DNA of 58,013 nucleotides from a virus. The notes below the pieces were generated by a model. The model had not been told where the DNA came from. It saw only the letters and a program-made list of their open reading frames with translations, and did no database searches. The position numbers and the translations under genes are program-made. Of this stretch, positions 8,893 through 48,262 are shown in pieces. Numbering within the stretch: position 1 is the first letter of the stretch; each line of letters opens with the position of its first letter. The stretch spans positions 1 to 58,013 of the IMG/VR virus record IMGVR_UViG_3300032157_000010. One strand, 5' to 3'.

Positions 8893-9010
8893 ATACAAAC
8901 CACCCAGACTACCCTGAGCAAGTCGCCCCTCCCAGGACCTTGCTCACCTCAGAATGTGCCCAGACTACCGGCCCGCTGCCTCCCCATCGCAGCGGGCCAT
9001 TTTCGTTTTC
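8893..9010 (+). ncRNA. Candidate small RNA opposite to the flanking operon
   Basis: On the plus strand an 8-bp hairpin (TGAGCAAG 8915-8922 with CTTGCTCA 8939-8946) is followed by a classical terminator: 10-bp stem (8970-8979 with 8989-8998) and the tail ATTTTCGTTTTC. The 11-base word CCCAGACTACC occurs twice (8903 and 8959). All flanking genes run leftward, so this terminator serves no visible gene and suggests a short rightward RNA starting near 8890. No convincing promoter is visible. Confidence 0.4.
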
Positions 9011-10434: not shown

Positions 10435-10526
10435 GGTATTCCCCCGTTTGGTTGCGCCCGAGGACGCAAGTACGGGGAGGGCGCGCATTCCAGCACGCTA
10501 GCTGATTGGCGGCGCCCTATGCAAGA

Positions 10527-16146: not shown

Positions 16147-17091
16147 ATGGAAGGCAACGGTTCAAAGGCGGTGACGATCGCGGCGGGGAAGGCTCCGCTC
16201 GCATTGGTGCCGACGACTTTCGATGAAGTGATGCGCTTTGCCAATATGGCGGTGAAGTCCGGCCGGATCGGTAAGGGCATGGATGACGGCGAGGCGCTCG
16301 CGCACGCCCAGATGATAATTTTACAGGGACTTGAACTGCACATCTCGCCGATGCAGGCCTTGAACGGCATCACGCTGATCAACGGCAATCCGTGCATCAA
16401 GGCCCAGCTCGGCCGCGCCCTGGTGCGCCGAGCCGGGCACCGGATCGAGGAATCGATGACCGGTGAGGGCGACGATCGCACCGCCCATTGCAAGATCACC
16501 CGCGGCGACACCGGCGAGGTGATCGAGACCTCCTTCTCGGTCGCCGATGCCAAGCAGGCCAGGCTGTGGTCGCCCGAGCCCAAGGTGGAGCGCTGGAACA
16601 AGTTCGAGAAGAAGAAGGAGCTCAAGGACAATGACAGCGCCTGGTACCGCTTCCCGACGCGCATGATGAAGCACCGGGCGTTCGGCCATTGCGCCTATGA
16701 CGCCTGCGCCGAAGTGATGCTGGGCATGTCGTTCGCCGAGATCATGGAGGACGAAGCGCATGAGGAGCACCGCGGCGAGGTCCGCTCCGTCCCCGACATT
16801 CCCCCGCCGCCGGAAGAACTGACGGATGATGCCGCCTTCGTGGCGGAGATGACGCAGGTTTCACCGGAAGAGCCGGACGAGACCCAACTCGATCTGGAAG
16901 ATGCCGTCACCCTGGAATTCGTGTCCCAGGCATTGGTCAACTTCCAGTGCAAGGCGTCGAACGCCACGACATCAGAGGAAATAGAGGCAGCCTGGGAAGA
17001 ATTCGAGGCCGAGACCGACGGCAAATGCCCGGCAGATCTGAAGCATTCGGCCGAAATCAGCTATGAGACGCAGATGGCGAGGCTGGGATGA
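16147..17091 (+). CDS. recT: RecT-like single-strand annealing protein
   Basis: 314 residues. The domain at about 20-215 follows the RecT/Bet-type order: DEVMRFANMAVKSG, HISPMQALNGITLINGNPCIKAQL, then KHRAFGHCAYDACAEVMLG. The acidic C-terminus (215-314) is rich in Glu and Asp, as in phage RecT proteins. It would anneal complementary DNA during recombination and genome concatenation. GGGAGGG precedes the ATG at 16147. Partner exonuclease is not obvious; the PD-(D/E)XK protein at 18004 is a candidate. Confidence 0.85.
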   Translation: MEGNGSKAVTIAAGKAPLALVPTTFDEVMRFANMAVKSGRIGKGMDDGEALAHAQMIILQGLELHISPMQALNGITLINGNPCIKAQLGRALVRRAGHRIEESMTGEGDDRTAHCKITRGDTGEVIETSFSVADAKQARLWSPEPKVERWNKFEKKKELKDNDSAWYRFPTRMMKHRAFGHCAYDACAEVMLGMSFAEIMEDEAHEEHRGEVRSVPDIPPPPEELTDDAAFVAEMTQVSPEEPDETQLDLEDAVTLEFVSQALVNFQCKASNATTSEEIEAAWEEFEAETDGKCPADLKHSAEISYETQMARLG

Positions 17092-23567: not shown

Positions 23568-26500
23568 CTACCGAGATGCGCGCTCAGGGATACCCAGCGC
23601 CTCGTTGAGGCCGGCTTCGATCTGGTCAATCGGCTTGCGCAGATAGAAAATGTTCTGCCCGGGGATGACCTGTCTGATGCGATGATTGTCTTTCCGGGTC
23701 CATTGCCTGTCGTCGAACACCGAACCGGCAATGTCGAGTGCATCCTCGGCCAGGCCGAAGGTCGGCCCCGCCAGCGACTGCAAGGTGTTGCGGCTGGCAT
23801 AGCGCGAGATCGGCTTGCCGGTCAGGGCGGCCAGACCGACCTTGCCACGCGAGACTTTCTCGACCAGATTATTGCCTTCCATCAGGATGCCGGCAAGGCC
23901 GGACCTGTCGAAGGCTTCACCCATGAACACCCCCCAATTGGTGTCATCGATGGAGGTTGGGATCAGCGCGGGCTTGCCGGCCATCTCGCCCTTGAGATAG
24001 TAGACCAGCCCGCCCAGAACCATCGATAGCAAAGCGCCATTTACGGCTGCGGCGTCGCGCTGTTGCAGTCCGGCGATCAGCATCTTTTGGGTCGCCGAGA
24101 AGGCGAACGACTTGAACTGCAGCATCAGCGCCCCGGTCATGGTCGAGGCGAATTTGGGTTTCTCGCCGACGCTCGGAGTAACAATGGTGCGGTCGATGTC
24201 CTTGCGCAAGGCGACCGAGAGGGCATCGCGGACATTGCCGGCCTCGGGCGCCCAGTTCTCGGCATTCGGCAGCCACAGGCCGTTCTTCTTGACGCCGTGC
24301 TGCTTGAACTCGATGCCCATGCGCCGCGCGGCACCATCGGAGATGCCCAGGAACGCCATATATTCCTGCTCGCCCTTGGACAAGGTCTTGCCCTCGGCGC
24401 GCTTGACGGCGTTGCGCATGATACGGTTCAGCGTCATGATGCTCGCGAACTGCTTCATGGTGGCGTTCCATGGCGCCATCAGCGAGACCATGCCGAACTG
24501 GCGGCCGCCCGACTGGACGAGGCGCTCGAACTTGGTGTTCTGGCCCCAGGTGTCGGAGATGTCGGCCATGCGCAAGGCGCGGCTGTCGGTGATCATTTCG
24601 GCGACGCCATGCAGCCTTTCGAGCTCGCGCGCGGTCTTCTTGAACTGGCCGAAATTGGCAAACATCGGAATGAGGCCGTCGGAGAAGGTGCGGGCAAGGC
24701 CGTGCACCATGACGAAACGTGCCGGGTCGGTGAAGGCCGAGACCGTCATCCCGCCCAGCTTGGACATATAGCTGAGGGTGAGGGCAGTGCGCCCGACGCG
24801 CAGCATGACGGCTTCGGGGTCTTCGGGGATCTTGTACTGGCCCCGCAGCCGGTCGCGGATGGCGGCGACATTGCGGAAGGTCTCGTCCTTTTCCCGCTGG
24901 AGCTTGCGGCGTTCGGCGTCGGTCTTGGCGGCATTGAGCAGCGCGGAATAGTCCTCGTCGATGTCCTTGAATTTGGTGATCATGTCCGGGGTGCCGAAGC
25001 GCTTGGCCAGTTCGATGTCGGAGATCATGGTGTGCGCATAGGAGCGCAAGAGCATGTCGATATCGCGCTCCAGGAAAGGCTCGATCAGCTTGTCCGGGAT
25101 CAGCCATGATCTGGCAGCGAGCGGCCCCCTGGCGTCCATGTCGGCGCCGAAGGCCTGCTGCTTGACGGATGGGGCGTCATAGGGCAGGCGGCCTTCGGGG
25201 GTGCCGATGATGCGGGAGATGATCTGGTCGGCAAGGCCGGGGAGTTCGGCCGGGTCCTTGGGCTCTTGGCCCGCGATCTTCTCGGCGGCGTCGCGCACGG
25301 GTTTGAGCATCTGTTCGGGCCGGCGCTTGGCGGAGGGGTCGCGGGCTTCGTCGGCCTTACGCCTTGCCTCAATGGCAGACTGAGCCTCGCCGGCGGTCTT
25401 GCCCTGGTAGGCTTCGACCTGTTCCTGAACGAGCTTCTCGATCTCCTTCAGCCGGACTTTGGCGGTTTGGATGGCGAGCTGGTCGGCTTCATCCTTGAGG
25501 ACGGCGGCCTCGTCGGTGGTGGAGACTCGGCCCTCCTCACGCGCCTTCTTGTCGGCTTTGGCCTGGCGCTCGGCGCGTTTCTGGATGCGGGTCTCGGCCG
25601 CGGCGATCTCGCCCTCGACGCTGGTGAGTTCATCCATCGACGCGCGCAAGGCATCGCGCACCCGGGCGTTGGATTTCTCCACCTCTCCCAGCCACTGCAC
25701 GATGACCTTCTTGAACTCGGGCCGGTTGTCGATGATCTTCTTGCGATCGTAAAGACGCATCATATAAGTGGGGGCAGTCTCGGGCGTGACGCCTTCGGGC
25801 AGCAGGCCGAGCTTGATGGCTTCGTCCTTCCATTTATCGAAATGCGGGCGCAGCCGCTTGGCGAGCGCTGCGACTTCGGCGATCTCATGGCTGTCGCCTT
25901 CGGCCATGGCGCGGCCGACGGCTTCGCGGAACTGCTTGAAATCCAGCTTGTCGCCGGAGCCGGTGAAGTAATCGCTGAGCGAGGTGACGGTGAGGTCGCC
26001 GGTGCGGCGCTTGTCGGTTCCCTTGCGGTACTTCATGAAGGCATCGTCGATGGCGGTGAAGCCGTCGGCCAGCATCTGCCCTTGGAAGGTCTTGATGCGG
26101 CTCTCCACCGCGCCATACTGGCCCTGTTCGGCACCGCCTCTTGCGGTCTCGAACCAATCGGCATGGTCGGCGCGATAGACGCCACTCTCCTGCAGCTCGT
26201 CTGCGACTTGGCGTGCGATGCGCGAGGAGGCGTTCTGCAGCCACAGGCCAGGGGCCAGCCGGGCAAGGCCCTTCTCGAGGCCGATGCCGGTCGATTTCAG
26301 GCGGTAATCGCCGGTCTGGGACGCGGCGGCACCGACCGAGCTTGCCCCTTGCCGCGGCGCTTTGGCCATGGCTGCACGCTTGCGCCCGTCGGCGCGCTCG
26401 GCGATTTTGCCGGCATCGATCTTGGCGAAGATGTCCTCGGCCGAGTTCATCCCCTTACCGGTCAGCGCGTTCCTGACAGCCTCAAGGAAATTGCGCACCC

Positions 26501-29500
26501 GGGCAAAGGCTGCGCCGATCACGCCTTTATGGGGTTCGGTTCCCCTCACCCATCTCTGATAGGCCATGGCGATGGCTTCTTCGGTGAGGCGGGATTGCAG
26601 ATCGGGGGAGAGTTTTGAGATGTCGAAGGGCTTGGCTTCTCCGCCTTTGCTGCGAACAGACAAGCGAACATCCGGCCCTGCCTGGCCATACCCGCCGACA
26701 TCGTCAATGCGCGCTTCCAGCTCGTCGACGAGATCTTCCATGCGCCTAAGATCGGGATCGACAAGGTCTTCCTTGATGCGGGAGAACTCTTTGGAGGCTT
26801 CATCGCGCTTGTCGAGCAGGATCGTTTCAAGCTGATCAGCCTGATCGCGCGCCAGCTTGGCCGGGTAGACGGCTTCGCCGAGGTCGGCTTGCTGATCCTC
26901 CAGTTCGACCGCTCTTTTGCCGACCGTGTCTGCATCCTTCAGGGCGTCGAATTTGGCGCGAACGTCATCGATAATTCCGCGTAGCCGCGCTGTCTCAAGC
27001 TCTCCTACGTCAAGAATGCTTTTTGTATTTGCATAATCGGGCATGCTGTAGCGCGCGATGATCTGGGATGCCGACGCGTCGATTTGCGCAACATCGACAT
27101 CTCCATCGTCTTCACGCGCCGATCGATCAATGGCCGTTGTATCGCCGGCTTCCTCCCGCAGCGCGATGATGTTTTCAAGGTCTTCAACGTGGCTTTCCAT
27201 GTCCTCAAGGATGCTGTCGGCATCGTCCTTGAGATTTGACATCTGATCGATCGCCTGCTCGAAGCGATTCGAGACGAGTTCATCGACTTCATCGATCTCG
27301 TCGGCGACACGGTAGCCAACCTGCAGGCGGTCGTTGACGATCTGTTGCAGGTCCGACAAGGCGTCAAGAAACGCCTCCTTGTCCTCGGGCGAGATCTGCT
27401 TGAAGTCGATATTGACGTGCTGTTCGGCAATATCGATGATGGCTTGGGTGTCGTGTTTGAAGCCGCGCACATGATCGGCGACCAGCCCCAGACGCGAGCC
27501 TTCCTTCATCTCCTCGACCATTGTGACGAGCGAGCGCAGCGAAAACTTCTCGCTGTCCGGCAGTTCGCGGCGCGGGCGCGTGGTGACGTTCAGCTTGGCT
27601 TTCAATTCGTCCACGGCATTTTTGAAGTCGGCAACATTGCGCACTTGTGGCACGCCGGGGCGCGCAACGACAAGCTGTTTGCCCTGCGCCTGGCCGCCCT
27701 CGGACGAAGGCTTGACACTGGGCGGCGCTGCCGTCTCCCCGGTGATGCTGGGACCGTACAGCTTGGCATAGTCCGCCATTTCGGGAACTGTCATCCAGCC
27801 CTTGGACTTTGCCGCATTCTCCAGCGCTTTCCATTCCCTGGGGGTGAAAGTGCCGAGCTCCTTCAGGGCATGGACCGATTCATGGTGCAGCGTGCCGACG
27901 GGATCGAGGGCTGCCCGCGAGATCGTCACCATCAGATTGCCCTGGGCATCCCTGGAGAAGGAGCCTTCGACGGTGGGGTCGCCACCTGTGCCCTTGCGCA
28001 TGCCCAGCATCTGGCTTTCGCTGAGCGCGCTGCGCACGGTGTTGTCGCCCCAGGAAATGTACCAATTCTCCTCGCCGTTGCCCTCATCGATGTTCCGGAC
28101 GACAAGGCCTGGGGCGCCCTCGCGCTTGGCGATGGCCATTTCGTCATTCAGCGAGCCGCCACTTGGCCCGGTCCCATCATTATGGGTCTGCCCGGCCCAG
28201 TCGATTTCCTTGAACCCTTTCGTTTCGACATAAACGGGATAGACCGCAGGCTTCATATTCATATCGAACGGGCTGTCGAAAAAGGCCTCGCCAGTGTATC
28301 TCGCCGTTCCTTCCGGCCTTGACGTAAAGAAAAACGCGCCGTCATGCGCTTCGCTGGCGTGCTCGGCACGAAACCGTTCGATCGCGCCGTTGGGCGTGCC
28401 GTGATAGCCTTTGACCTCGGTCGGCGTGCGCGGGGTGTCCGGGGTCTGGGGCTGTTCGCCGCGGCGGACGGCAAAGGCGGTCTCGCCGGAATTGGCGTAT
28501 TTGACCGAGCCTTGCCTGATCCCGACGATCTCCCGGTCGACGCCGTCCCTGCGGACGATGACGCTGTCATAGCCGGCCTTGAGAAGAGCTTCCGAGAAGC
28601 GCTTGGCGGCGCGGATCTGGGCATCGCGGCCGACCACGCCGCGGTCCCAATATTCGCCAGGCGAGCCCTCGAAGGTCCAGCCATGCTCTTTCAGCGCGGC
28701 CCAGTCGGCGCTGGATTTGCCGAATTCGGTGGCGTCGATGACGAAGGGCCGGGAGGTCTCCACCTGCAGGATGAGATTGCGCATCGCGCCCGAGCCGTGG
28801 CCATAGCCGACGGTTTTCCCGGCGGCGCCTTGCGCCTTCACCCATTCCTCGGGAAACATGTAGACGCCGTGCCCCCATTCGGAGGGGGCGAATTTGCTTT
28901 CGTCGAAGACCTTGAAGCCGCGATCGGTGCCGTGCACGCCGCGGCGGATGGAGAACAACTCATCGACGACCTTTGCCCGTTCGCCGGCCGCAACCGGCTT
29001 GCCGTCCTTGGCGGTGATTTTCACGAGGCTGTCGTCGAAGGCGACATAATCGGTCGTCTCCGCATTCCAGTAGCGCACGCCGGGGACGCCGGACTCCGCC
29101 AGAAGGCGGGAGGTCGCGACATCCGACATGGTCTTAGCTTCCAGGGCGGCGTAAAAGTCGGAGCCCTTCAGGTCCATCGCCTCTTCGCCAAGGCCGGCTT
29201 TGCGCGCGGCCTCCCTAGCCTTGGCCGCGACTTCGGGCTGGTCCTTGACGGGGACATCCCAGTCGAGGAGCTGGGTCGGCTCGGCATCGAGTTCGACCTC
29301 ATAGAGGTGCCCGCCCGAACGGACCTCGCCCTTGGCGACCCGCTCCATGGCCTCGACGCGCCCCAGCTTGCGATTGGTGGCCTCCACCATGAAATCGGAC
29401 GGGTTCGGCTTGTCGAGAAGCGCCTGCACATCGCGGCGCTCCTGCCCCAACACCTGATCGAGCTTACCTTCGCGGCGCAGCATGGCGGCCTGCCGGACCT

Positions 29501-30728
29501 CGCCTGTCGCCACCACCTCATCGCCGATCACGGTCGGGGCGGTGAATTCCCGGTAGCGCGTGGCATTGGCGGCATTGTCCGCGAAATAGAGCCCGTAGCC
29601 GGCTCGGCGCGTGCCCTCGCCCTCTCCGACATGGGCCATGTCGAACCGGTCGAAATCGGCGCCGGTGCCGTGATAGGCGCGGATGCCCAATTGCTCGGCG
29701 CCCGATTTCACCTTGTCGGCATCGGCGCGCAGGGATTCCACCACATTCAGCTTCACGCTGTCGGGCAGGATCCGGGAGGCGACGGTTTCCAGTTCGGTGC
29801 GCAAAGCGTCGGTTGTGTCCCTTGCAGTTGCGATATCGGCGTCGAGGTCAGGATCGCGCGCGGGCACAGAGCCGGCAAGAGCGGCCGCGCCGGCGGGGGA
29901 AAGGTCGTCGGGGCGCGGCGTGAACGCGGGGGAAGCGGCGCTGTCATCCGGCCCGCGGCCGAGGTCATCCTCGATCGCTTTGCCGACGCCATCCATGTCG
30001 AAGCCCGAGGCCAGCGCACGGCGGGCCAGGCCGGCCCCCAGCAGGCCGGAGAGGACCGTGGCGCCAGCGATAGCCATCGCGCTTTCTTCGCCTGTACGGG
30101 TCTGCTGGGTGGCTTGCAGCGCACCTTCCGTGGCGACCGCGCCGGCCGCGCCATAAGCGGCGACGGAGGCCGCCGAGCGCAGCACCGAAGCGCCGCCCCG
30201 CGCCGAGCGCACCACTGCGCCGCCTGGCAAGAGGATGGTGGGATCGAACAAGCCGGCCGCCAGCCCTTGCGCAAAGCCGACCGCGCCCTGGCTTTCCAGA
30301 TATTTGCGATCCTTCACCTCGCGGTCGATGTCGGATTTGATGGCATCGGCATGCGCCTTGGATCTGGCGCGGGTAAAATTCTCCCAATGCTCCTCATAAG
30401 GCGTGCCGGCGATATCGGCCCAGGGGTCGTAGCCATCCTCGGCCGGGCCGTCGAAGGCGAGGCTATTGGAGGAGAGCAGCGAGCCGACGGTGTTTTCCAT
30501 GCGGAAAGCCGCCGAGGCGCCCTCGCCATCCGCCAGCAATGCGCCGCCGCCGACTGTGGCCATCGCGCCGAGTGTCAAGGCCGGCGCGAACAGCATGCCG
30601 GCGCCGAGGCCCGCCGCCCCCGTCACCTTGGCGGCCGTCGACAGGCCCTCATCTTCCGGAACCGGAGTGGACAGGTCGCGATTGGGCAAAAAGCCGCCGG
30701 TCGGCGCAGTTTCAGGGCGCAGAGGCAT
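23568..30728 (-). CDS. Giant internal virion protein with three ART-like domains and an HExxH motif
   Basis: 2386 residues. N-terminal Gly/Ala-rich hydrophobic segments lie at about 35-65 and 150-240. Three regions have the ADP-ribosyltransferase-like pattern: (1) about 349-572 with YHGT (352-355), GYGLYFAD and a closing YVAFDDSLVKI; (2) about 595-745 with VHGT (598-601), GHGVYMF; (3) about 773-900 with YHGT (775-778), DGAFFF and WYISWGDNTVRS. HESVH (949-953) fits a zincin HExxH metalloprotease. A long charged helical region (about 1030-1370) follows, then a large C-terminal part without recognised domains. The layout matches the polyvalent proteins described by Iyer, Burroughs and Aravind. 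Position between fibre and amidase protein suggests it is packaged and ejected into the host. Activities are untested. Confidence 0.8.
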   Translation of the reverse strand: MPLRPETAPTGGFLPNRDLSTPVPEDEGLSTAAKVTGAAGLGAGMLFAPALTLGAMATVGGGALLADGEGASAAFRMENTVGSLLSSNSLAFDGPAEDGYDPWADIAGTPYEEHWENFTRARSKAHADAIKSDIDREVKDRKYLESQGAVGFAQGLAAGLFDPTILLPGGAVVRSARGGASVLRSAASVAAYGAAGAVATEGALQATQQTRTGEESAMAIAGATVLSGLLGAGLARRALASGFDMDGVGKAIEDDLGRGPDDSAASPAFTPRPDDLSPAGAAALAGSVPARDPDLDADIATARDTTDALRTELETVASRILPDSVKLNVVESLRADADKVKSGAEQLGIRAYHGTGADFDRFDMAHVGEGEGTRRAGYGLYFADNAANATRYREFTAPTVIGDEVVATGEVRQAAMLRREGKLDQVLGQERRDVQALLDKPNPSDFMVEATNRKLGRVEAMERVAKGEVRSGGHLYEVELDAEPTQLLDWDVPVKDQPEVAAKAREAARKAGLGEEAMDLKGSDFYAALEAKTMSDVATSRLLAESGVPGVRYWNAETTDYVAFDDSLVKITAKDGKPVAAGERAKVVDELFSIRRGVHGTDRGFKVFDESKFAPSEWGHGVYMFPEEWVKAQGAAGKTVGYGHGSGAMRNLILQVETSRPFVIDATEFGKSSADWAALKEHGWTFEGSPGEYWDRGVVGRDAQIRAAKRFSEALLKAGYDSVIVRRDGVDREIVGIRQGSVKYANSGETAFAVRRGEQPQTPDTPRTPTEVKGYHGTPNGAIERFRAEHASEAHDGAFFFTSRPEGTARYTGEAFFDSPFDMNMKPAVYPVYVETKGFKEIDWAGQTHNDGTGPSGGSLNDEMAIAKREGAPGLVVRNIDEGNGEENWYISWGDNTVRSALSESQMLGMRKGTGGDPTVEGSFSRDAQGNLMVTISRAALDPVGTLHHESVHALKELGTFTPREWKALENAAKSKGWMTVPEMADYAKLYGPSITGETAAPPSVKPSSEGGQAQGKQLVVARPGVPQVRNVADFKNAVDELKAKLNVTTRPRRELPDSEKFSLRSLVTMVEEMKEGSRLGLVADHVRGFKHDTQAIIDIAEQHVNIDFKQISPEDKEAFLDALSDLQQIVNDRLQVGYRVADEIDEVDELVSNRFEQAIDQMSNLKDDADSILEDMESHVEDLENIIALREEAGDTTAIDRSAREDDGDVDVAQIDASASQIIARYSMPDYANTKSILDVGELETARLRGIIDDVRAKFDALKDADTVGKRAVELEDQQADLGEAVYPAKLARDQADQLETILLDKRDEASKEFSRIKEDLVDPDLRRMEDLVDELEARIDDVGGYGQAGPDVRLSVRSKGGEAKPFDISKLSPDLQSRLTEEAIAMAYQRWVRGTEPHKGVIGAAFARVRNFLEAVRNALTGKGMNSAEDIFAKIDAGKIAERADGRKRAAMAKAPRQGASSVGAAASQTGDYRLKSTGIGLEKGLARLAPGLWLQNASSRIARQVADELQESGVYRADHADWFETARGGAEQGQYGAVESRIKTFQGQMLADGFTAIDDAFMKYRKGTDKRRTGDLTVTSLSDYFTGSGDKLDFKQFREAVGRAMAEGDSHEIAEVAALAKRLRPHFDKWKDEAIKLGLLPEGVTPETAPTYMMRLYDRKKIIDNRPEFKKVIVQWLGEVEKSNARVRDALRASMDELTSVEGEIAAAETRIQKRAERQAKADKKAREEGRVSTTDEAAVLKDEADQLAIQTAKVRLKEIEKLVQEQVEAYQGKTAGEAQSAIEARRKADEARDPSAKRRPEQMLKPVRDAAEKIAGQEPKDPAELPGLADQIISRIIGTPEGRLPYDAPSVKQQAFGADMDARGPLAARSWLIPDKLIEPFLERDIDMLLRSYAHTMISDIELAKRFGTPDMITKFKDIDEDYSALLNAAKTDAERRKLQREKDETFRNVAAIRDRLRGQYKIPEDPEAVMLRVGRTALTLSYMSKLGGMTVSAFTDPARFVMVHGLARTFSDGLIPMFANFGQFKKTARELERLHGVAEMITDSRALRMADISDTWGQNTKFERLVQSGGRQFGMVSLMAPWNATMKQFASIMTLNRIMRNAVKRAEGKTLSKGEQEYMAFLGISDGAARRMGIEFKQHGVKKNGLWLPNAENWAPEAGNVRDALSVALRKDIDRTIVTPSVGEKPKFASTMTGALMLQFKSFAFSATQKMLIAGLQQRDAAAVNGALLSMVLGGLVYYLKGEMAGKPALIPTSIDDTNWGVFMGEAFDRSGLAGILMEGNNLVEKVSRGKVGLAALTGKPISRYASRNTLQSLAGPTFGLAEDALDIAGSVFDDRQWTRKDNHRIRQVIPGQNIFYLRKPIDQIEAGLNEALGIPERASR

Positions 30729-30786: not shown

Positions 30787-33435
30787 TTAGTCGAACAGCC
30801 CCATGATCGCCCGCTGCGCCAGATCGACCGATGCATCCAGCGCCGGCCTTGGATCATGCGCCTGGGACAGAGCCTTCTGCCTGACTTCGGCTTCCTTGGA
30901 CTTGGCGGCCTTGACGTCGACGAAGAAGGGGCGGGGTGCGATCCGGATAGCGGGGATGCCGTTTTCATCCTCGTCGATCCAGCCGATATCGTAGGAGGGA
31001 TGCGGATTGCCCCGGGCAATGTCGCCGAAGGTGGTGGGGCCGGAGCGGATGATGATCTTGTCCAGCGGGATTTCTTTGCCGGCCAGCTCTCGCACCGTCT
31101 GTTTCAGATCGTCGGTGAAGTAATCCATCGACGGCTTGCCATTGGCTCGGGATGCGATCGGGGGATAGTATTTCTCCGGCGGCTCGCGCATCAGGATTTT
31201 CCGGCCGGTGATGGCCGAGGTGGAATAGACCTGGGCGAGATGGTTCTGGGCGGCCTTCTTGGCCCATTCCGCGTCGCCGGTCTCGACATAGTTCATCCGG
31301 AAGGCTTCGCGATAGGCTTCCTGCACCTCGGCCCTGGCGCGGTCGTTGATGAAGCCGGGCTCGGAGGAGAACCAGCCGTCATGCCTGGCGGTGATGTCGG
31401 CGACGGTGAGGTCCTTGGCGAGCTTGGCCCCATCCTCGGCCAGCGCCTTCTTGGCCTTCTGGAATTCCGGGGTCTTGGTTTCCTCGATCTTGGCGATCGC
31501 CTGTTGCGGGGTGAGGCCGAGATCCATCACCAGGGTGTTGAACCGTGTGGTGTCGGCTTCAAAATCCTTGTCCGCCCCCGTCGCGCCCGGCCGCTCGCGC
31601 ATGATGCGCCCGACGGTCTGATAGGCATAGATCTTCTGCTCACCCGAGCCATTGACCGCCATGCCGCGCAGCGACTGCATCGCCCCTTGCGGGATATAGG
31701 AGGTCTCCTGGGCGAGCTTCACCACGGCTTCGGCGGCTTCCGGCTGCCCAGATTGCAGGGCGGTGGAGAGATCCGACGCCGCCCAGGCCTTGTCGACCAC
31801 CTTGCGGTCATCGGCGGAACCGGGATCGACGGGATAGGCGCCGGCGATCAGCATCCGCGCCCGCTCGGCATCGGCTTCCTTCTCGCGCAAAGCATTGGCC
31901 CTGGCGACGATATCGCCGCGGGCGGCCGCCAGTTCGCGGGCGAAGGCGCCGCGCATAGTGGGATCTTCGAGCGTGGCGGTCATCACCTCGCCGCGGATCG
32001 CCTTGAGGGCGGCTTGCCCTTCGCGCGATTCCCGGTCGTTCTGCAATTCGCCATGGCCCAGAATGCGCGAGGTCGGGATGGAATAGGTCTTGGAGAGTGA
32101 ACCCGCCAGTTGCTTGACGGCGGCAAGCTGCTCCGGCGTCTCGTCGCCGCCAGAACCCAGCAGCGAAATCCCGATGGCATTCTCATTGGACAGGCCCGAG
32201 GCATCCTTGCGCTGACCATGGGAGACGGGCTTGACATGGTTGGTGCGCTTGTCCATCGGCGCACCCTGGTAGATGGTGCCGTCCTTGTCGATGTAGAAAT
32301 GATAGCCGAACGAGCCGCCGCGGGCGCGGTCGACGGAATGGCCGTATTTGATGAAGCGATCGGCGCCGTCGCCGCCGGTGTGATGCAGCACGATGCCCTT
32401 GAAAGGCTGGGCATGGCGCGAGGCCGAGCGGCCATATTCGGCGTCGTCGCTGACCCGGTCGACAATGCGAAGGCCATTGACGACAAAGCGCCCGCCTTCT
32501 TCGCGCCCCGGTGAAACAGGTTTTGTTTCACGGGAAACAGCCTCCGCGCGCGGCCCGGTGATCCGACCCTTGCCGCGGGCATAATCGGTGATGGAAACCG
32601 CTCCGTCCGGCTTGGCTTCACCGGTTGTCGGCTTGGCTCTGGTCTCGGGGTTCTCGGCTTCATCCACCTTGCCGGAGATGCCCCCGCCCAGGCTGGGCTG
32701 AGTGCTGCCGGGGGCATCGAACAGATCGCCGGTGAGCCGGTCCAGCGTCTTGGCGTCGGCGTTTTCCTTCAGATTGCGGACGAACTCTTTTGCCGCTTTC
32801 TGGCGCATTTCGTCAAGCACCGGGGCGGGGACGATGCCGCGATAGGCCTCGATCGACTGCTCGATGCGGTCGATGCCGCCGCGCACGTCTCCGCCGGCAA
32901 TCGCGCGCTGGGTGATGGCATCGACATTGGTGGCGAGCTGGTCGCCGAACATGCGGATGCGTTCGTTGTTCTCATACGCAATCGATTTGCCGATATATTG
33001 ATGCTGGCGGCGGATTTTCAGGCTTTCGAATTTCTGCAAAGCCTCTTCCGACGGGCGGAAGCCGCGCTCGGTCAGCCTTGCACGCACGCCCTCGGTGTCG
33101 GTCTCCAGCCGGGCGGTGAGCGTATCGGTCATCCGCTCGGCGCCAGAGCGGGCGCGTGTGGTCTCATCGTTGAAGGCGCGTGAATAGCCGGTGTCGAGTT
33201 CGAGGTCCGCGGCATCGAGGAAAGCGGCATCTTCCGCCGCGCGCCGGCGCTCCTCCAGCTTCTGCTGGGCCTCGACATAGCCGGACAGGGCCTTGCCGAC
33301 ATCGCCGATGGAGGCGCCGACCTGACGCGTTGCCCGCCCGACCTGGGCGCCGAAATCATCACCGTCCGCCCGAGGCAGGGCTTGCGTCGCCGCGCTCGGA
33401 ATCGGGACATTATTGGGGCCGATGACCCTAGCCAT
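30787..33435 (-). CDS. Internal virion protein with Amidase_2 peptidoglycan hydrolase domain
   Basis: 882 residues. The first 240 are helical and charged. Residues about 345-480 form an N-acetylmuramoyl-L-alanine amidase (Amidase_2/PGRP) domain: GIVLHHTGG with His351/His352, FGYHFYIDKDGTIYQGAP, ENAIGISLLG and ILGHGELQND with His461, giving zinc-ligand and catalytic positions. The remaining 400 are helical. As in T7 gp16, a wall-cutting domain inside an ejected core protein lets DNA and proteins cross the cell wall. Located with the other internal proteins. Confidence 0.85.
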   Translation of the reverse strand: MARVIGPNNVPIPSAATQALPRADGDDFGAQVGRATRQVGASIGDVGKALSGYVEAQQKLEERRRAAEDAAFLDAADLELDTGYSRAFNDETTRARSGAERMTDTLTARLETDTEGVRARLTERGFRPSEEALQKFESLKIRRQHQYIGKSIAYENNERIRMFGDQLATNVDAITQRAIAGGDVRGGIDRIEQSIEAYRGIVPAPVLDEMRQKAAKEFVRNLKENADAKTLDRLTGDLFDAPGSTQPSLGGGISGKVDEAENPETRAKPTTGEAKPDGAVSITDYARGKGRITGPRAEAVSRETKPVSPGREEGGRFVVNGLRIVDRVSDDAEYGRSASRHAQPFKGIVLHHTGGDGADRFIKYGHSVDRARGGSFGYHFYIDKDGTIYQGAPMDKRTNHVKPVSHGQRKDASGLSNENAIGISLLGSGGDETPEQLAAVKQLAGSLSKTYSIPTSRILGHGELQNDRESREGQAALKAIRGEVMTATLEDPTMRGAFARELAAARGDIVARANALREKEADAERARMLIAGAYPVDPGSADDRKVVDKAWAASDLSTALQSGQPEAAEAVVKLAQETSYIPQGAMQSLRGMAVNGSGEQKIYAYQTVGRIMRERPGATGADKDFEADTTRFNTLVMDLGLTPQQAIAKIEETKTPEFQKAKKALAEDGAKLAKDLTVADITARHDGWFSSEPGFINDRARAEVQEAYREAFRMNYVETGDAEWAKKAAQNHLAQVYSTSAITGRKILMREPPEKYYPPIASRANGKPSMDYFTDDLKQTVRELAGKEIPLDKIIIRSGPTTFGDIARGNPHPSYDIGWIDEDENGIPAIRIAPRPFFVDVKAAKSKEAEVRQKALSQAHDPRPALDASVDLAQRAIMGLFD

Positions 33436-33630: not shown

Positions 33631-34122
33631 CTAGACAAGCGGATTACCCGCGGTCCGACCGGCCTGCGGGTAGTTGTTGAACGCGCGCGAAGCCCCCGAC
33701 AGCAAGGTGGCGGCGGCGGAGAGCTTTCCGGCTTTTTTGAAATTCTTCGCCGCCGTCCGGTCCAGATTGGCCTGGTTCTCATAGGCATTGGCCTTGACCG
33801 CGCCTTCATGGGTGATGCGGGAGGAACCGAGCGCAATCTCATTGACGATGTCTTCGTCCACCATCAAAGGCGTGCCGGCGAGATCGATGCCCGAGGCGCC
33901 GCGGCTCGCGATGGCGGTCGCCCGCTCGCGGCTCATCTTGCGCTCATAGTCGGAGGCCTCGACCGCCGCCCGGTCGCGCTCGGCAGCGGCGTTGATCTCG
34001 CCCACCTTGGCGTTATATTCTGCGGCATTGGCATTGGCTTCGCCTTCATTCCTGGCGCCGACCGCGCCGACGACGGAGCCGGCCATGCCAAGCACGGCGG
34101 AGGCAACAGCAAGAAAAGCCAT
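33631..34122 (-). CDS. Internal virion core protein, T7 gp14-like
   Basis: 163 residues. An N-terminal hydrophobic segment (AVASAVLGMAGSVVGAVGA) precedes a long helical Ala- and Glu-rich body (NANAAEYNAKVGEINAAAERDRAAVEASDYERK), the usual build of podovirus gp14-type internal proteins. Genes for the amidase-bearing and giant proteins follow, with a 195-base gap (33436-33630) that holds no clear gene or terminator. Confidence 0.75.
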   Translation of the reverse strand: MAFLAVASAVLGMAGSVVGAVGARNEGEANANAAEYNAKVGEINAAAERDRAAVEASDYERKMSRERATAIASRGASGIDLAGTPLMVDEDIVNEIALGSSRITHEGAVKANAYENQANLDRTAAKNFKKAGKLSAAATLLSGASRAFNNYPQAGRTAGNPLV

Positions 34123-39452: not shown

Positions 39453-39968
39453 TTAGGCCGCCCGCTTGCCGCCGGCGATGAAGGCTTCTGCCGCCTCGCG
39501 ATCCTTGAAGCTATCGATGATATTGCCCAGGCCGTCCTTCACATGGAAGGTGACGAGTGCCGGCTTGCCGCGGCCCTGGCCGGTGCGCTCCTCGACAACC
39601 TCGAGCGCTTCGATGCGGGGATCGCCGGACTTATGCCAGACATTCACGGTCTCACCGGCTGCCAGTTCGACCGCGGTCAGATCCTCGATCTCGCCGCGCT
39701 GGCGCAGCACCGGGCGGCGGCCATCCGCGCCCACCACCAGGAAGCTGGCGATCTCCTTCAGCACCGACGCATTGCTGCCGCGGTCGGTGAAGTGCATCTC
39801 GATCCTGTCGCCGACGCGGATCCGGTTGGCGACGCGCGAGAAGCAGTCGGGATTATCCAGCACATGGGCGATCGGGGCATAGACCCTTGCGGTGAACTGT
39901 TGCCCATAGGTGACGGCGCCACCGGAAAGTTGAAAATCATTCGGATCGATGCGGTAATCGCTGGTCAT
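39453..39968 (-). CDS. Hypothetical structural protein
   Basis: 171 residues. Beta-rich (QFTARVYAPIAHVLD; IRVGDRIEMHFTDR), with a C-terminal helical segment (IIDSFKDREAAEAFIAGG). Its place before gp11 suggests a virion accessory protein, such as a head or tail decoration. No family recognised. Confidence 0.65.
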   Translation of the reverse strand: MTSDYRIDPNDFQLSGGAVTYGQQFTARVYAPIAHVLDNPDCFSRVANRIRVGDRIEMHFTDRGSNASVLKEIASFLVVGADGRRPVLRQRGEIEDLTAVELAAGETVNVWHKSGDPRIEALEVVEERTGQGRGKPALVTFHVKDGLGNIIDSFKDREAAEAFIAGGKRAA

Positions 39969-40039
39969 TTGTCATTCGCCTGTGTGTATCGGGGACAAGT
40001 TTTCTTGCCGCGGAACGCTGCCGGACTGATGAAGTTGGC

Positions 40040-40819
40040 TCAATACCAGTGAGCCGGGATCCATTTGTGGTGGACATGCAGATGGGTCATCGACGGGTCG
40101 TAATCGGGGCCGTGGAAGAAGACGATTTTCGCGCGCTCCACCATGTCGGGCAACGACGCCTGGCTCCTGGCGAAGGCTTTCCGCTTCATGCCCGAGAACG
40201 GCATCTGGCCGGCTCTGTCGAGATGGAAGCGGAAGGAATAGATGCCGTCGCGCATCCCCCAGCCGGCTTTCTCGGTCGGGAGCATATAGGCCATCCAGGC
40301 CTGGTCCGAGCCGATCAGGCCATGGGTCTTGCGCAGGTTCAGGGCAATATCGGGGTTGAAGTCATGATACACGCCAGGCGCGAAACCGATCTTCAGTCGC
40401 CAAAGGCTTCCACACATCTCCGACCGGCTCTCCCGGCCGATCCGCCAGATGCGGAATGGTTCGGGGTCATTCTCGAACAATGGGCGGATGTCGCCCTTGA
40501 TCACCGCATCGAGGTCGATCGAGATGATGTCATCGCCCAGTATGGGAGCCATTGCCGGATCGAAGGCGCGAAGTCTGCAATAGCATTTCCCGTACTGCCT
40601 GAGGCTGTCCCAGAGGGGCACGATCTCCACGTCGTCTTGGATACCCTCAGGCGAATCGGTGACGCACAGGATCTTGCCTGAAAAGCCCGGCCAGTTGCGC
40701 CGGATCATATTGGCCATCCGGTTGACGTGGTCCGGGGTGAAGGTCTTCTTGGCGCCGTACATGGTGGAGCCGCCCTCGGGCGAACGCCACAGCCACAGGA
40801 TAAAGTTCGGGTGAGTCAC
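40040..40819 (-). CDS. Glycosyltransferase-like protein (GT-A fold)
   Basis: 259 residues. The sequence KILCVTDSPEGI, then SLRQYGKCYCRLRAFDP and IISIDLDAVIKGDIRPLF has the DxD-type motif (DLDAV) and order of GT-A enzymes, similar to family GT8-like proteins. PDIALNLRKTHGLIGSDQAWM and HVHHKWIPAHWY close the fold. It could transfer a sugar to a virion or host surface component. ATGA overlap with the HNH gene upstream. Confidence 0.7.
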   Translation of the reverse strand: MTHPNFILWLWRSPEGGSTMYGAKKTFTPDHVNRMANMIRRNWPGFSGKILCVTDSPEGIQDDVEIVPLWDSLRQYGKCYCRLRAFDPAMAPILGDDIISIDLDAVIKGDIRPLFENDPEPFRIWRIGRESRSEMCGSLWRLKIGFAPGVYHDFNPDIALNLRKTHGLIGSDQAWMAYMLPTEKAGWGMRDGIYSFRFHLDRAGQMPFSGMKRKAFARSQASLPDMVERAKIVFFHGPDYDPSMTHLHVHHKWIPAHWY

Positions 40820-41298
40820 AGCAAGGTATCTTTCCAGGTCTCGCCTCGGACAATGCGGCCGATGCTGCTTTGGGAGATGCCGTATTTTTTAGAAAGATAT
40901 CTTTGCGACAGGCCAGCGGCGGCTGCCTCCCTGATAAGGGTGACCTCTCGACATCTGATCTTTGCCTTCGGATTTCGCTCATTAACGGGGCGATACACCC
41001 TGCCCTTCGCGACCTTATCTGCGTGGTTTATTTCATGTGTGCCCAGAAAAAGGTGCTCTGGGTTCACGCATCTCCGATTATCGCATTTGTGCAGAACCTG
41101 CTGACCCGCAGGAATTGGCCCCCGGTTTTTCATCCAGGAGAACCTATGCGCTCCGATATCCTGCCTCCCGTCGTAAACCCGGCCATAGCCGTCATGGTTC
41201 AGGGCGCGCTGCCATTCCCAGCAGCCAGTTCGTTGATTTTCAATCCAATGCCTGTCGAAAGTCTCTCTGAAAGACTCACCCTTTTTCTGCCGTCTCAA
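40816..41298 (-). CDS. HNH homing endonuclease with helix-turn-helix tail
   Basis: 160 residues, TTG start at 41298. The HNH core is GCWEWQRALNHDGYGRV, then QVLHKCDNRRCVNPEHLFLGTHEIN with the His-Asn-His residues in order. A C-terminal HTH (GLSQRYLSKKYGISQSSIGRIVRGETW) provides DNA recognition. It lies between two glycosyltransferase genes with 4-base overlaps at both ends, so it does not disrupt coupling. Likely a free-standing homing endonuclease. Confidence 0.9.
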   Translation of the reverse strand: MRRQKKGESFRETFDRHWIENQRTGCWEWQRALNHDGYGRVYDGRQDIGAHRFSWMKNRGPIPAGQQVLHKCDNRRCVNPEHLFLGTHEINHADKVAKGRVYRPVNERNPKAKIRCREVTLIREAAAAGLSQRYLSKKYGISQSSIGRIVRGETWKDTLL

Positions 41299-42098
41299 AG
41301 CACCCTCTCATATGGAAAGCTAAGAACTTTTGGCGGTCCTTGCCATTCAGCCGCAATGCGGTGAACGGCTTGGTCCTGAAGCTCTTTCCTGCCATATGTA
41401 GTTGTCGAGGAGTCCCGGTCAAACTCTCGGCGGACAAGCGGACGATTCATGACGGCAATTGGTGCAGTTCTGGCACAGCGACGCCTGAATTCACCGTCAG
41501 AGCCATAATGACCTGAGAAGGCTTCGTTGTAGCCTCCAACGTGGAAGAACATCTCCCGCGTCATGAACCAAGAATTTTTGTGCGGCGGGAGGATCGGGCC
41601 GCCTTGATGCCCTTCATGCCGCGTGAAGCGGTAGATGGTGTCTGCTCTCTGGTCACCATAGGCCAGCCCTACGACCGTCGTGAAGGGCATGGCGTGGTCC
41701 ATATCCGTCATCGCCAGCCAGGAGCCCTCAGGGGCCTCGTGGGCGGCGATGTTGCGGGCGGCTAGCCAGTTCCACCTTGCCTTCTCTTTGACCCTGTAGA
41801 GGCTGAAATTAGGCGGTATGGCCTCGCCCCGGATTGCCTCGGAGGCCGGCGTCTCGCTGGAGCAGTCATCGACCACGCAAAGCGAAATCGGTGCATCCAG
41901 CCGCAAGTTGGCAAAGCCGCGGATCAGATCCCGCAAGGTCTTGGGATTCTCGAAATAGGGCTTGATGATGACGACCGGCTTGGCCTCGACCCCGATCTCG
42001 ACATCGACCACCGGCGCATCATCGCAGCCCGGCGCCGTCACCCGCTGGCCCCATTGGTTCTTGGCCACCCGCATCTGGTTCATGGCAAGGCCCATCAT
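41295..42098 (-). CDS. Glycosyltransferase family 2-like protein
   Basis: 267 residues from the ATG at 42098, with AAGGGG before it. The GT2 order is clear: VVIIKPYFENPKTLRDLIRGFANL, CVVDDCSS, EKARWNWLAARNIAAHEAPEGSWLAMTDMDH (DxD-like) and then REMFFHVGGYNEAFSGHYGSDGEFRRR. It would transfer sugars, probably to polysaccharide or a protein. Clustered with other such genes. Confidence 0.85.
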   Translation of the reverse strand: MMGLAMNQMRVAKNQWGQRVTAPGCDDAPVVDVEIGVEAKPVVIIKPYFENPKTLRDLIRGFANLRLDAPISLCVVDDCSSETPASEAIRGEAIPPNFSLYRVKEKARWNWLAARNIAAHEAPEGSWLAMTDMDHAMPFTTVVGLAYGDQRADTIYRFTRHEGHQGGPILPPHKNSWFMTREMFFHVGGYNEAFSGHYGSDGEFRRRCARTAPIAVMNRPLVRREFDRDSSTTTYGRKELQDQAVHRIAAEWQGPPKVLSFPYERVL

Positions 42099-42105
42099 AT
42101 TCCCC

Positions 42106-42330
42106 TTATCGCGCCGGAATGGTCGATTGGCCGCATTCGGTGCAGCGCAGCCCTGATGTGCGATACCACAGGAAGGTCTGGCTGCCGCACAGGCATTCCC
42201 AGATCTGACCGGAGGCATCCATCTCGCGCTGCCGCTCGCGCCGGGCGACCCACAGATTGGCAACAGAAGATGGCGTGACGGCCTCGCCTCGAGGCAATTC
42301 GCGCCAGATGAAGGGGAGAACCTTGCCCAT
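42106..42330 (-). CDS. Small zinc-ribbon protein
   Basis: 74 residues from the ATG at 42330 (ATGA overlap). CLCGS and CTECG supply two Cys pairs at the C-terminus, a small zinc ribbon. The N-terminal part is a basic region (ELPRGEAVTPSSVANLWVARRERQ). Role unknown. Confidence 0.65.
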   Translation of the reverse strand: MGKVLPFIWRELPRGEAVTPSSVANLWVARRERQREMDASGQIWECLCGSQTFLWYRTSGLRCTECGQSTIPAR

Positions 42331-42536
42331 CAGTCCCGTCCACATTGTTCGATTGCGGCATCCAGCGCTTCTTCGGTGAGCGGGATCCCCGCCTCGATCA
42401 GTTGCGCGACCCGGGCCACGGCCTGCGCATCCTGCCAATGCGCCTTGCGGTGGACATAGAGCGTGGCTGTCGCCTTAGCCTGCGGCGTACGGTGGTCGGT
42501 ACCGTCGAGCAAAGCCGTGATCGCTGCGTAAGCCAT
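42330..42536 (-). CDS. Small helical hypothetical protein
   Basis: 68 residues, helical (VARVAQLIEAGIPLTEEALDAAIEQ), coupled to both neighbours by overlapping stop and start codons. No family recognised. Confidence 0.6.
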   Translation of the reverse strand: MAYAAITALLDGTDHRTPQAKATATLYVHRKAHWQDAQAVARVAQLIEAGIPLTEEALDAAIEQCGRD

Positions 42537-43225
42537 CAGGCATCCTTCCAGACATAGACCCAGTCGGCATTGACATTCAGCACCAGCTCATAGCCAAGAT
42601 CGGCCAGCATTGCCGGGATCACCCGGCCGTCATCGCCATAAAAGCGCGACTTGCCTTTGACCTCGTACATGATGACCGGGTGATATTTGCCGATGGTTTC
42701 CTGGGCGCCGAGCAGGGCCTGATATTCATAGCCCTCGACGTCGAGCTGGAGAAAATCGCAAGCCGCAAGGCCCAGATCGTCAATGCGCAGCACCGGGATC
42801 GGACCGCCGCGCGAGACACGGTGTGCACCGCAATTGTCGGTGCGGTTCAGATCGACGCCGCCGCGGCTGTTGCCGACCGCAGCATTGAGCTTGAAGACGT
42901 TCTCTTCCGGCACATTGGCGCACAGGCAGCGAAAGTTCAGCGGATCGGCCTCGAAAGTGTAGACCGCTTCGAACTGTGTGGCCAGGTGCTTGGGCCAGAC
43001 GCCCATATTGCCGCCGGCCTGGACGCAGACGCGGCGGCCGGATACATGCTCGAGCGCTGCGTAGAGGTCTGGGAGGCGCGCCCAGGCGAGCCGGGCGCAT
43101 TCGGTGTCGATCTCAGGCCACAGCCAGGCGCCGTGCATGTATTTGGTGCGGGAGAGCTTGGCCGCATTGGGCATCGGATCCACCGAGATCTTGCGCGTTT
43201 TGCGGCCTGAGATCGAGAAGGACAA
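42536..43225 (-). CDS. FkbM-family methyltransferase-like protein
   Basis: 229 residues, TTG start with GGAG upstream. CVQAGGNMGVWPKHLATQFEAVYTFEADPLNFRCL has the SAM-binding GxGxxG-like loop and acidic end typical of FkbM methyltransferases, and LAACDFLQLDVEGYEYQALLGAQETI is the signature DVEGxE motif. FkbM enzymes often methylate sugars or glycans. Next to the glycosyltransferases, it likely caps a glycan. Confidence 0.85.
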   Translation of the reverse strand: MSFSISGRKTRKISVDPMPNAAKLSRTKYMHGAWLWPEIDTECARLAWARLPDLYAALEHVSGRRVCVQAGGNMGVWPKHLATQFEAVYTFEADPLNFRCLCANVPEENVFKLNAAVGNSRGGVDLNRTDNCGAHRVSRGGPIPVLRIDDLGLAACDFLQLDVEGYEYQALLGAQETIGKYHPVIMYEVKGKSRFYGDDGRVIPAMLADLGYELVLNVNADWVYVWKDA

Positions 43226-43228
43226 GGG

Positions 43229-43468
43229 TCAGACTCCGCGCATCAGGACGAGCACGATGCTGTCGGACGACAGATCCCCAGTATACCACTGCGTGATCTG
43301 ATCGTCGGTGGAGATGATGGCCTCGAAGGGGAACTCGTTCTGGCGGTTGTTGATCCCGTTCAGAATAACGGCATCGCCTGCCTTCAGGCCGGGAACGCTG
43401 ATCGCCCCAGTTCCATTGCGGCCGTTGAACGATGCCTTCACGAAGGCGACGGGAACAGTCACGGTCAT
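43229..43468 (-). CDS. Small beta-rich structural-like protein
   Basis: 79 residues from the ATG at 43468 with AGGAG before it. Beta strands (VTVPVAFVKASFNGRNGTGAISVPG; SDSIVLVLMRG) suggest a decoration or fibre-type protein. It might be the acceptor of the neighbouring transferases; that is speculation. Confidence 0.5.
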   Translation of the reverse strand: MTVTVPVAFVKASFNGRNGTGAISVPGLKAGDAVILNGINNRQNEFPFEAIISTDDQITQWYTGDLSSDSIVLVLMRGV

Positions 43469-43480
43469 GCACAACTCCTT

Positions 43481-44149
43481 TCAGATCCAATAGCTCGCGA
43501 ACCAGTCGTAGCGCTGAACCGCCTTATGGTTCTTGCATCCCACGCACAGGATGACCTTGGCCTCCTCGCCCCAATTGCCGTCGGCGACATGGCTCAATCG
43601 GCGAATCCAGGGCTTGGGGAAGGTGACCTCGGAAGGCGAGATGTGCTTGATGGCGTCCTGGTCGCCGAAGAAGGCGCGGCGATAGCTGAGCGAGCCTGCG
43701 GTCGCCAGCTTCTTGCGCGAACCCTTGTCCCAAACCATCACGCTGGAGTTGTAGCCTTTTTGCACCTTCTTGCCGCCGATCCCCTGAAAATCCGGCGCGC
43801 TGTCGGCCGCGATCGCAAAGTCCACCGGATAGTCGATGATCGGGTCGAGGTCGCCCACCACCAGGACATCCAGATCCAGGAACAGCATGCGCTTGGAAAA
43901 GCACGGCTCCTTGTCGACGAACACCAGAGGCTTGCGCCAGAAGCCGCGCTCGCCCCGGCTCATTGCGGGCGTGTAGATGGTATCGATATCGGGCGGCAGA
44001 TCGAAGGTGCCGTCGGTCAGGCAAACGGTGTTGAAGTCTTTCGATGTATTGCGCCGCACCATGGAGCGGAGCTTGACGACATAGTCGGAGGTGAATCTCT
44101 GGTTACCCCTGATCAAGAGGCAGACGAGCGTAAAGCTATCATGCCCCAC
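43481..44149 (-). CDS. Glycosyltransferase-like protein (GT-A fold)
   Basis: 222 residues from a GTG at 44149 that has GGAGAG before it and overlaps the end of the HNH gene. FTLVCLLIRGNQRFTSDYVVKLRSM, RMLFLDLDVLVVGDLDPII (DxD: DLD) and YNSSVMVWDKGSRKKL mark a GT-A fold like GT8 or glycogenin types. The C-terminal GDQDAIKHIS matches the usual DQ motif. Confidence 0.75.
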   Translation of the reverse strand: MGHDSFTLVCLLIRGNQRFTSDYVVKLRSMVRRNTSKDFNTVCLTDGTFDLPPDIDTIYTPAMSRGERGFWRKPLVFVDKEPCFSKRMLFLDLDVLVVGDLDPIIDYPVDFAIAADSAPDFQGIGGKKVQKGYNSSVMVWDKGSRKKLATAGSLSYRRAFFGDQDAIKHISPSEVTFPKPWIRRLSHVADGNWGEEAKVILCVGCKNHKAVQRYDWFASYWI

Positions 44150-48253: not shown

Positions 48254-48262
48254 AAGATCATC

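What the first reader, a model, noticed from the sequence alone, without database searches (positions are those of the whole stretch)
23568..30728. Giant ejected-type virion protein with three ADP-ribosyltransferase-like domains and an HExxH metalloprotease motif
One 2386-residue protein in the virion operon carries three separate YHGT/VHGT-type ART-like regions (about 349-572, 595-745, 773-900), HESVH at 949-953, long helices and a large unassigned C-terminus. It lies with internal core proteins, so it may enter the host with the DNA and modify host targets at once. This matches the polyvalent protein idea, but three ART units in one podovirus internal protein seem unusual.
Basis: partly seen in the sequence, partly recalled or inferred. 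Interest (0 to 1): 0.92.

Follow-up and report, generated by a model that had tools for sequence, protein, structure and literature searches.

The report
Phage ejection protein carrying effector cargo
A short-tailed bacteriophage has packed three ADP-ribosyltransferase-like domains and a metalloprotease into the protein that builds its DNA-injection channel, at a point where related phages carry other cargo or none, so the enzymes probably arrive in the host cell with the DNA.

Summary
In detail: window 23568-30728, minus strand, encodes 2386 aa with ART-PolyVal regions at 335-585, 590-760 and 765-910 and HESVH at 949-953. The "unassigned" C-terminus is not unassigned. Residues 75-235 plus 1474-2380 form a T7-gp16-type ejection protein (PHROG 342, E 9e-97; T7-like gene order). 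The ARTs and zincin are cargo of about 1,250 aa set between these halves. In relatives two fixed slots are filled, emptied and swapped (slot A changes at least 6 times, slot B 11 times, on the backbone tree). One pair with 64-67% identical backbones differs by a 756-aa ART-ART-zincin cassette. Both slots map to the part of T7 gp16 placed in the host cytoplasm. ART1 is strong, ART3 has altered motif residues, ART2 is weakest. The zincin is split by a 370-aa coiled insert. Polyvalent proteins with several ARTs are known (Iyer 2017), so three ARTs are not the surprise. New here are the swappable cargo slots in gp16 and a linker motif, [RK][YF]S[LIV][RK], enriched in zincin-bearing polyvalent proteins and not in ART-only ones: a candidate self-processing site. 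Activity, packaging, ejection and cleavage are inferred, not shown.

The parts
23568..30728 (-). Whole gene: 2386-aa gp16-type ejection protein with ART/zincin cargo
30024..30506 (-). Backbone N module (res 75-235), hydrophobic peaks at 155 and 217; collinear with TMH I of T7 gp16
   Evidence: blastp to relatives, profile match 69-284 E 7e-49, hydropathy, T7 map PMC8954989
28974..29726 (-). ART1 (res 335-585): H353, Y381, third-motif strand DYVAFDD (560-566)
28449..28961 (-). ART2 (res 590-760): H599, Y623, E733; divergent
   Evidence: Pfam E 1.7e-4; profile E 0.014; low-confidence model
27999..28436 (-). ART3 (res 765-910): H776, F800 in place of Tyr, W889 at the acid position
   Evidence: Pfam E 3e-6; profile E 4e-13; model and Foldseek to ParT/tankyrase
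27729..28016 (-). Zincin, first part (res 905-1000), HESVH 949-953
26619..27728 (-). About 370-aa insert rich in Asp/Glu and helices inside the zincin (res 1001-1370)
   Evidence: HExxH to EEAxA spacing 434 against 20-79 in 79 relatives; helical in the model
26364..26618 (-). Zincin, second part (res 1371-1455) with EEAIA 1383-1387, the presumed third zinc ligand
25530..26309 (-). Backbone M module (res 1474-1733)
25248..25529 (-). Slot B (res 1734-1827): short coil here; up to 763 aa in relatives
23589..25247 (-). Backbone C module (res 1828-2380), includes hydrophobic peak 2227
   Evidence: PHROG 342/16310, T7 gp16 hhalign E 9e-5
28941..28955 (-). Linker motif FSIRR (592-596), ART1/ART2 junction
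28461..28475 (-). Linker motif FAVRR (752-756), ART2/ART3 junction
27993..28007 (-). Degenerate linker motif LGMRK (908-912), ART3/zincin junction
27531..27545 (-). Linker motif FSLRS (1062-1066), start of the coiled insert
26649..26663 (-). Linker motif LSVRS in context PDVRLSVRS (1356-1360), end of the coiled insert
   Evidence: compare NPDVRYSLR in relatives
30787..33435 (-). Upstream gp15-position protein (882 aa) with Amidase_2 at 343-464
33631..34122 (-). gp14-like internal virion protein (PHROG 418)

Best explanation
This is the gp16-type ejection protein of a T7-like-order podovirus, fused with a removable effector cassette (three ART domains and a split zincin) between its first membrane region and its cytoplasmic body. 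It is packaged in the head core. At infection it is threaded out through the tail and builds the inner-membrane part of the DNA channel, with the cassette on the cytoplasmic side, where NAD+ is. ART1 and possibly ART2 then ADP-ribosylate host targets early. ART3, with two motif residues changed, may be inactive or bind differently. The zincin probably cuts the linkers marked by the [FY]S[LIV]R-type motif and so frees the units. Shown by sequence or model: gp16 backbone, ART and zincin domains, slot gain and loss, linker-motif enrichment. Inferred: packaging, topology, catalysis, cleavage, host target.
For: PHROG 342 (internal virion protein with endolysin domain) E 9e-97 and PHROG 16310 E 2e-136 on the C-terminus. 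Gene order tail tube A, tube B, two small internal proteins, gp15-position protein, gp16, tail fibre, the order seen in T7. The profile of compact relatives aligns to T7 gp16 795-1258 (E 9e-5, probability 60), with a collinear but insignificant match of the N module at T7 317-378. Published topology: T7 TMH I 243-410, gp16-C 411-1118 in the cytoplasm (PMC8954989). Hydrophobic peaks only in the extreme N-terminus, the N module and the C module, none in the cargo. Relatives of about 1000 aa lack cargo. L018 and L016 are 64-67% identical on both sides of a 756-aa cassette. Slot A filled in 7 of 69 with 6 changes, slot B in 13 of 68 with 11. Other cargo in the slots: ddrB-ParB, PRTase-like, two ARTs plus GNAT-like plus zincin. 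Linker motif: R[YF]S[LIV][RK] 30 observed against 0.8 expected in 61 zincin ORFs, 0 in 74 ART-only ORFs, controls at expectation, copies lie outside the ART/zincin domains. In gp16-linked proteins: 7 in three zincin cargoes (0.46 expected), 0 in their backbones, 0 in seven relatives without this zincin.
Against: No proteomics, activity or cleavage data exist for this metagenomic contig. Detectable homology to T7 gp16 itself is modest. Nothing shows that a 250-kDa protein with folded ARTs passes the tail. N4 vRNAP, also zincin-bearing, is packaged uncut (Iyer 2017). The linker pattern was noticed in the window and refined after seeing relatives, so the enrichment test is not fully held out. An earlier looser pattern was not enriched in the ART-locus set, and the four genome loci give only one or two independent positions.
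Confidence: 0.68

Rival explanations
1. The cassette is delivered as one uncut gp16 fusion and stays tethered to the channel; the zincin attacks a host protein (for example a defence factor) and does not process the cargo.
For: N4 vRNAP and plasmid TraC1/ArdC carry zincins and travel uncut (Iyer 2017). Polyvalent zincins may also act after injection.
Against: The linker motif follows the zincin and lies at domain junctions.
Confidence: 0.2
2. The zincin cuts the protein during head assembly, so ARTs are packaged as separate pieces or removed, like phage P1 DarA/DdrB.
For: P1 DarA and DdrB are cut before packaging (Iyer 2017).
Against: No packaging signal other than the gp16 backbone is evident, so freed pieces would have no known route into the head.
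Confidence: 0.15
3. The ART and zincin regions are decayed or purely structural inserts that lengthen gp16 and have no enzyme role.
For: ART3 has F800 and W889 at motif positions; ART2 is very divergent; the zincin is interrupted by 370 aa.
Against: ART1 keeps the motif pattern; the zincin keeps HExxH and EEA and models as one fold; cassettes with ARTs recur in L018, L011 and L047.
Confidence: 0.12
4. The [YF]SLR motif is not a cut site but a recombination footprint or docking motif that marks module edges.
For: Modules are swapped at these edges; some right flanks are shared (mean identity 14% against 6% random).
Against: Flanks are otherwise near random, the core is conserved at protein level, and zincin-less multi-ART proteins have a different linker (DITKAxGG).
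Confidence: 0.35

Closest known systems
T7 gp16 internal virion protein D / PHROG 342
   Same: Position in the ejection operon, C-terminal body, hydrophobic regions at matching places
   Different: T7 carries an N-terminal lytic transglycosylase; here that is absent, an amidase sits in the gp15-position protein, and a 1,250-aa cassette is inserted after the first membrane region
Polyvalent proteins with ART-PolyVal (PF18760) and zincin MPTase (Iyer et al. 2017, PMC5512222)
   Same: ART family, several ARTs in one chain, zincin, GNAT/ParB/PRTase cargo in relatives, idea of zincin processing
   Different: The text of that paper does not mention gp16 or internal virion proteins, and searches of it showed no linker motif; here the delivery part is identified and the zincin is split
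Schitoviridae N4 vRNAP (3,500 aa, ejected; PMC12633501)
   Same: Giant third ejection protein with a HExxH domain; a Roseovarius-phage vRNAP also carries an ART
   Different: No RNA polymerase domain was found here; the backbone is gp16-type, which N4-like phages lack
T4 Alt
   Same: Head-packaged ART injected with DNA (Iyer 2017)
   Different: R-S-E class ART, not built into an ejection-channel protein
Klebsiella phage ST512-KPC3phi13.3 QBQ71875.1 and Vibrio phage 1.138.O AUR90136.1
   Same: Same gp16-type backbone
   Different: Slot A empty, 1129 and 1057 aa

Membership tests
gp16-type podovirus ejection protein | Sequence homology to the internal virion protein family | tested here: met
   PHROG 342 E 9e-97; hhalign to T7 gp16 E 9e-5, probability 60
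gp16-type podovirus ejection protein | Last of the gp14-gp15-gp16 cluster, before the tail fibre gene | tested here: met
gp16-type podovirus ejection protein | Two membrane-inserting regions | tested here: inconclusive
   Hydropathy peaks at 155, 217 and 2227, plus one at 41; insertion itself not testable
gp16-type podovirus ejection protein | Present in virion and ejected | not testable with these tools
   No proteomics
T7 gp16 subtype | N-terminal lytic transglycosylase | tested here: not met
   No Pfam hit in res 1-340; Amidase_2 in the neighbouring protein
ART-PolyVal | Profile match | tested here: met
   Whole protein E 2e-15 above cut-off; segments 9e-7, 1.7e-4, 3e-6, each below cut-off
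ART-PolyVal | H-Y-acid motif | tested here: inconclusive
   Kept in ART1 and ART2; ART3 has F800 and W889
ART-PolyVal | ADP-ribosyl transfer | not testable with these tools
   No assay
Zincin MPTase of polyvalent proteins | HExxH plus downstream glutamate helix | tested here: met
   HESVH 949 and EEAIA 1383; both halves match one profile, E 6e-24 and 3e-23; core pLDDT 94-97
Zincin MPTase of polyvalent proteins | Contiguous domain | tested here: not met
   434 aa between motifs against 20-79 in 79 relatives
Polyvalent protein | Several unrelated activities in one mobile-element polypeptide | tested here: met
   ARTs, zincin and ejection backbone

The most novel reading that the evidence does not exclude
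The gp16 ejection protein of many podoviruses is a general effector-delivery platform with two exchangeable, cytoplasm-facing cargo slots, and zincin-bearing cargoes carry a common cut-site code, [RK][YF]S[LIV][RK], by which the embedded zincin releases each effector after delivery.
Probability: 0.33. Interest if true: 0.82.

Novelty: new variant of a known kind. Interest (0 to 1): 0.62.

Why it matters
It joins two literatures that the papers searched keep apart: the podovirus DNA ejectosome (gp14-15-16) and polyvalent effectors. If right, the large unexplained size range of gp16 homologues comes partly from swappable effector cargo placed where T7 gp16 faces the cytoplasm, and the long-standing guess that the zincin processes polyvalent proteins gets a concrete site to test.

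Tried and rejected
Three ARTs as the novelty: rejected, others have three or more. A looser pattern [FYLM][SAG][LIVM]R as a general polyvalent motif: not enriched in the ART-locus ORFs (16 against 34 expected); only zincin-bearing proteins show the tighter form. ART2 or ART3 alone as IMG/VR queries: no relatives. PDB sequence search of the whole protein and of the gp16 C-module profile: nothing meaningful. Foldseek of the long AlphaFold model is swamped by the coiled coil. A short-ART alignment was too divergent for a collection scan. Zincin search in seven genomes holding gp16 prophages: none; in 399 genomes of the same phylum: three, giving only one or two independent motif positions. NCBIfam: no hit on the window protein. 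Cargo in L042 and L173 looked RNase-like by eye, but Pfam gave no hit, so it is not claimed. No virion proteomics could be consulted.

Full report
Observation. The ORF at 23568-30728 is real, runs on the minus strand and encodes 2386 aa from an ATG. ART-PolyVal matches at E 2e-15 with three stretches; each region alone also matches (9e-7, 1.7e-4, 3e-6). A profile grown from an ART of another multi-ART phage protein (L151) finds regions 1 and 3 strongly (E 1e-30, 4e-13) and region 2 weakly (0.014). AlphaFold2 with alignments of fetched relatives models region 1 and the zincin core well, region 3 fairly and region 2 poorly. Foldseek of the region 2-3 model returns ART folds first: ParT, RES, tankyrase and diphtheria toxin A in the PDB, PolyVal ARTs in BFVD. 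So two ARTs are secure and one (ART2) is probable. At the motif positions ART1 has H353, Y381 and the strand DYVAFDD; ART2 has H599, Y623, E733; ART3 has H776 but F800 and W889 (read), so ART3 may not be an active enzyme.

What the rest is. Residues 1512-2376 match PHROG 342, internal virion protein with endolysin domain, at E 9e-97, and PHROG 16310 at 2e-136. Named phage relatives without cargo are 1,057-1,129 aa and align to window 75-220 and 1474-2380 only. A profile of 16 compact relatives fits T7 gp16 795-1258 (E 9e-5, probability 60); the N module shows a collinear but statistically weak match near T7 317-378. The neighbours are tail tube A and B, two small internal proteins, a gp15-position protein and a tail fibre, the order seen in T7. 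The window protein lacks the T7 transglycosylase; an Amidase_2 domain sits in the gp15-position protein, much as lysozyme sits on the gp15-like protein in K1E (PMC8954989).

Cargo slots. In 80 IMG/VR relatives the backbone splits into N, M and C modules. Compact ones have about 64 aa between N and M and about 7 between M and C; others carry large inserts at one or both places. On a tree of the C module, slot A is filled in 7 of 69 with at least 6 changes and slot B (200 aa or more) in 13 of 68 with at least 11. L018 and L016 are 64-67% identical on both sides, yet L018 has 756 aa (two ARTs and a zincin) where L016 has almost nothing. Slot contents differ: ART or ART-ART-zincin (L047, L018), ART-ART-GNAT-like-zincin (L011, closest kin, 53% identical in the C module), PRTase-like (L033), ddrB-ParB in slot B (L002). 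All these domain kinds are known from polyvalent proteins (Iyer 2017).

Topology. In the published T7 model TMH I spans 243-410 and gp16-C (411-1118) forms a ring in the host cytoplasm (PMC8954989). Slot A lies just after the TMH I-like module and slot B inside gp16-C, so both should face the cytoplasm, where NAD+ is. Hydropathy agrees: peaks at 41, 155, 217 and 2227, none in the cargo. This is inference by homology, resting partly on a weak N-module match.

Zincin. Both halves match one zincin profile at E 6e-24 and 3e-23. In 79 relatives HExxH and the second-helix EEAxA lie 20-79 aa apart; here 434, because of a 370-aa insert rich in Asp and Glu (22% together) and predicted helical. The predicted core still closes. 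I know of no function for the insert.

Linkers. All six matches of a loose pattern in the window protein lie at module edges. In 61 non-redundant zincin-bearing ORFs the tighter R[YF]S[LIV][RK] occurs 30 times against 0.8 expected; 74 ART-only ORFs have none and controls are at expectation; of 62 copies of [YFL]S[LIV]R one lies inside an ART or zincin domain. At matching ART tails, zincin-bearing proteins mostly read NPDIRYSLR or a variant (21 tails), zincin-less ones DITKAxGG or a variant (4 tails). Three gp16-linked zincin cargoes hold 7 copies of F[SA][LIV][RK] (0.46 expected), their backbones none, seven relatives without this zincin none. Flanks of copies within one protein are nearly unrelated. 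The simplest reading is a processing site for the zincin. Cautions: the pattern was not fixed before all test data were seen, sampling came from one zincin clade, and the independent genome loci are few. Searches of the paper library found no earlier report of such a motif, but that library is open-access only.

Mechanism. Most likely: packaged in the head core, ejected with the other core proteins, anchored at the inner membrane, ARTs exposed to the cytoplasm, units freed by the zincin, host proteins ADP-ribosylated early. Packaging and every later step are inferred. The host is probably an alphaproteobacterium, since the nearest genome relatives are Rhodospirillales and Rhizobiales; this too is inference.

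Novelty. Polyvalent proteins, several ARTs per protein and zincins within them are known (PMC5512222), as are head-packaged phage ARTs (PMC9503650). The gp16 link with two mobile slots, the split zincin, and the zincin-linked linker motif were not found in the papers searched.

Noticed in passing
window 39453-46642, minus strand: Between tail tube A and the head genes lies a block with two glycosyltransferase-like genes (40040-40819, 43481-44284), a methyltransferase (42536-43225) and a weak DNA-methyltransferase match (45833-46642): an unusual sugar-modification insert inside the structural operon.
   Followed up: partly
window 30787-33435, minus strand; L018 1398-4703: The gp15-position protein also has a swappable slot: Amidase_2 here (residues 260-480), an unrelated insert of about 180 aa at the same place in L018.
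   Followed up: partly
L109, L116, L151, L163: Multi-ART proteins without this zincin carry a different repeated linker, DITKAxGG or similar, at the place where zincin-bearing ones have DIRYSLR; possibly another processing site.
   Followed up: partly
L171 3404-11092 (Prochlorococcus phage P-SCSP1o): A T7-like (Autographiviridae) cyanophage has a 2563-aa protein with a related zincin (HESFH 1204) and a PHROG 'portal protein' match at 451-763; it may be a tractable system in which to test zincin-bearing virion proteins.
   Followed up: partly
L004 4918-6081 (Sulfitobacter phage phiGT1 QLB38217.1): A 387-aa protein with an ART close to the window's ART1, encoded near portal and scaffold genes.
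   Followed up: partly
L042 7430-8150 and L173 8120-8760: Slot A cargoes of unknown kind with no Pfam hit; they look RNase-like by eye.
   Followed up: partly
window 47711-48301 (-) and 50278-50934 (+): Two HNH endonucleases in the head-gene region.
   Followed up: no
window 16147-17091 (+) and 9010-10488 (-): RecT-like annealing protein and a primase-like protein: probable early or replication region.
   Followed up: no
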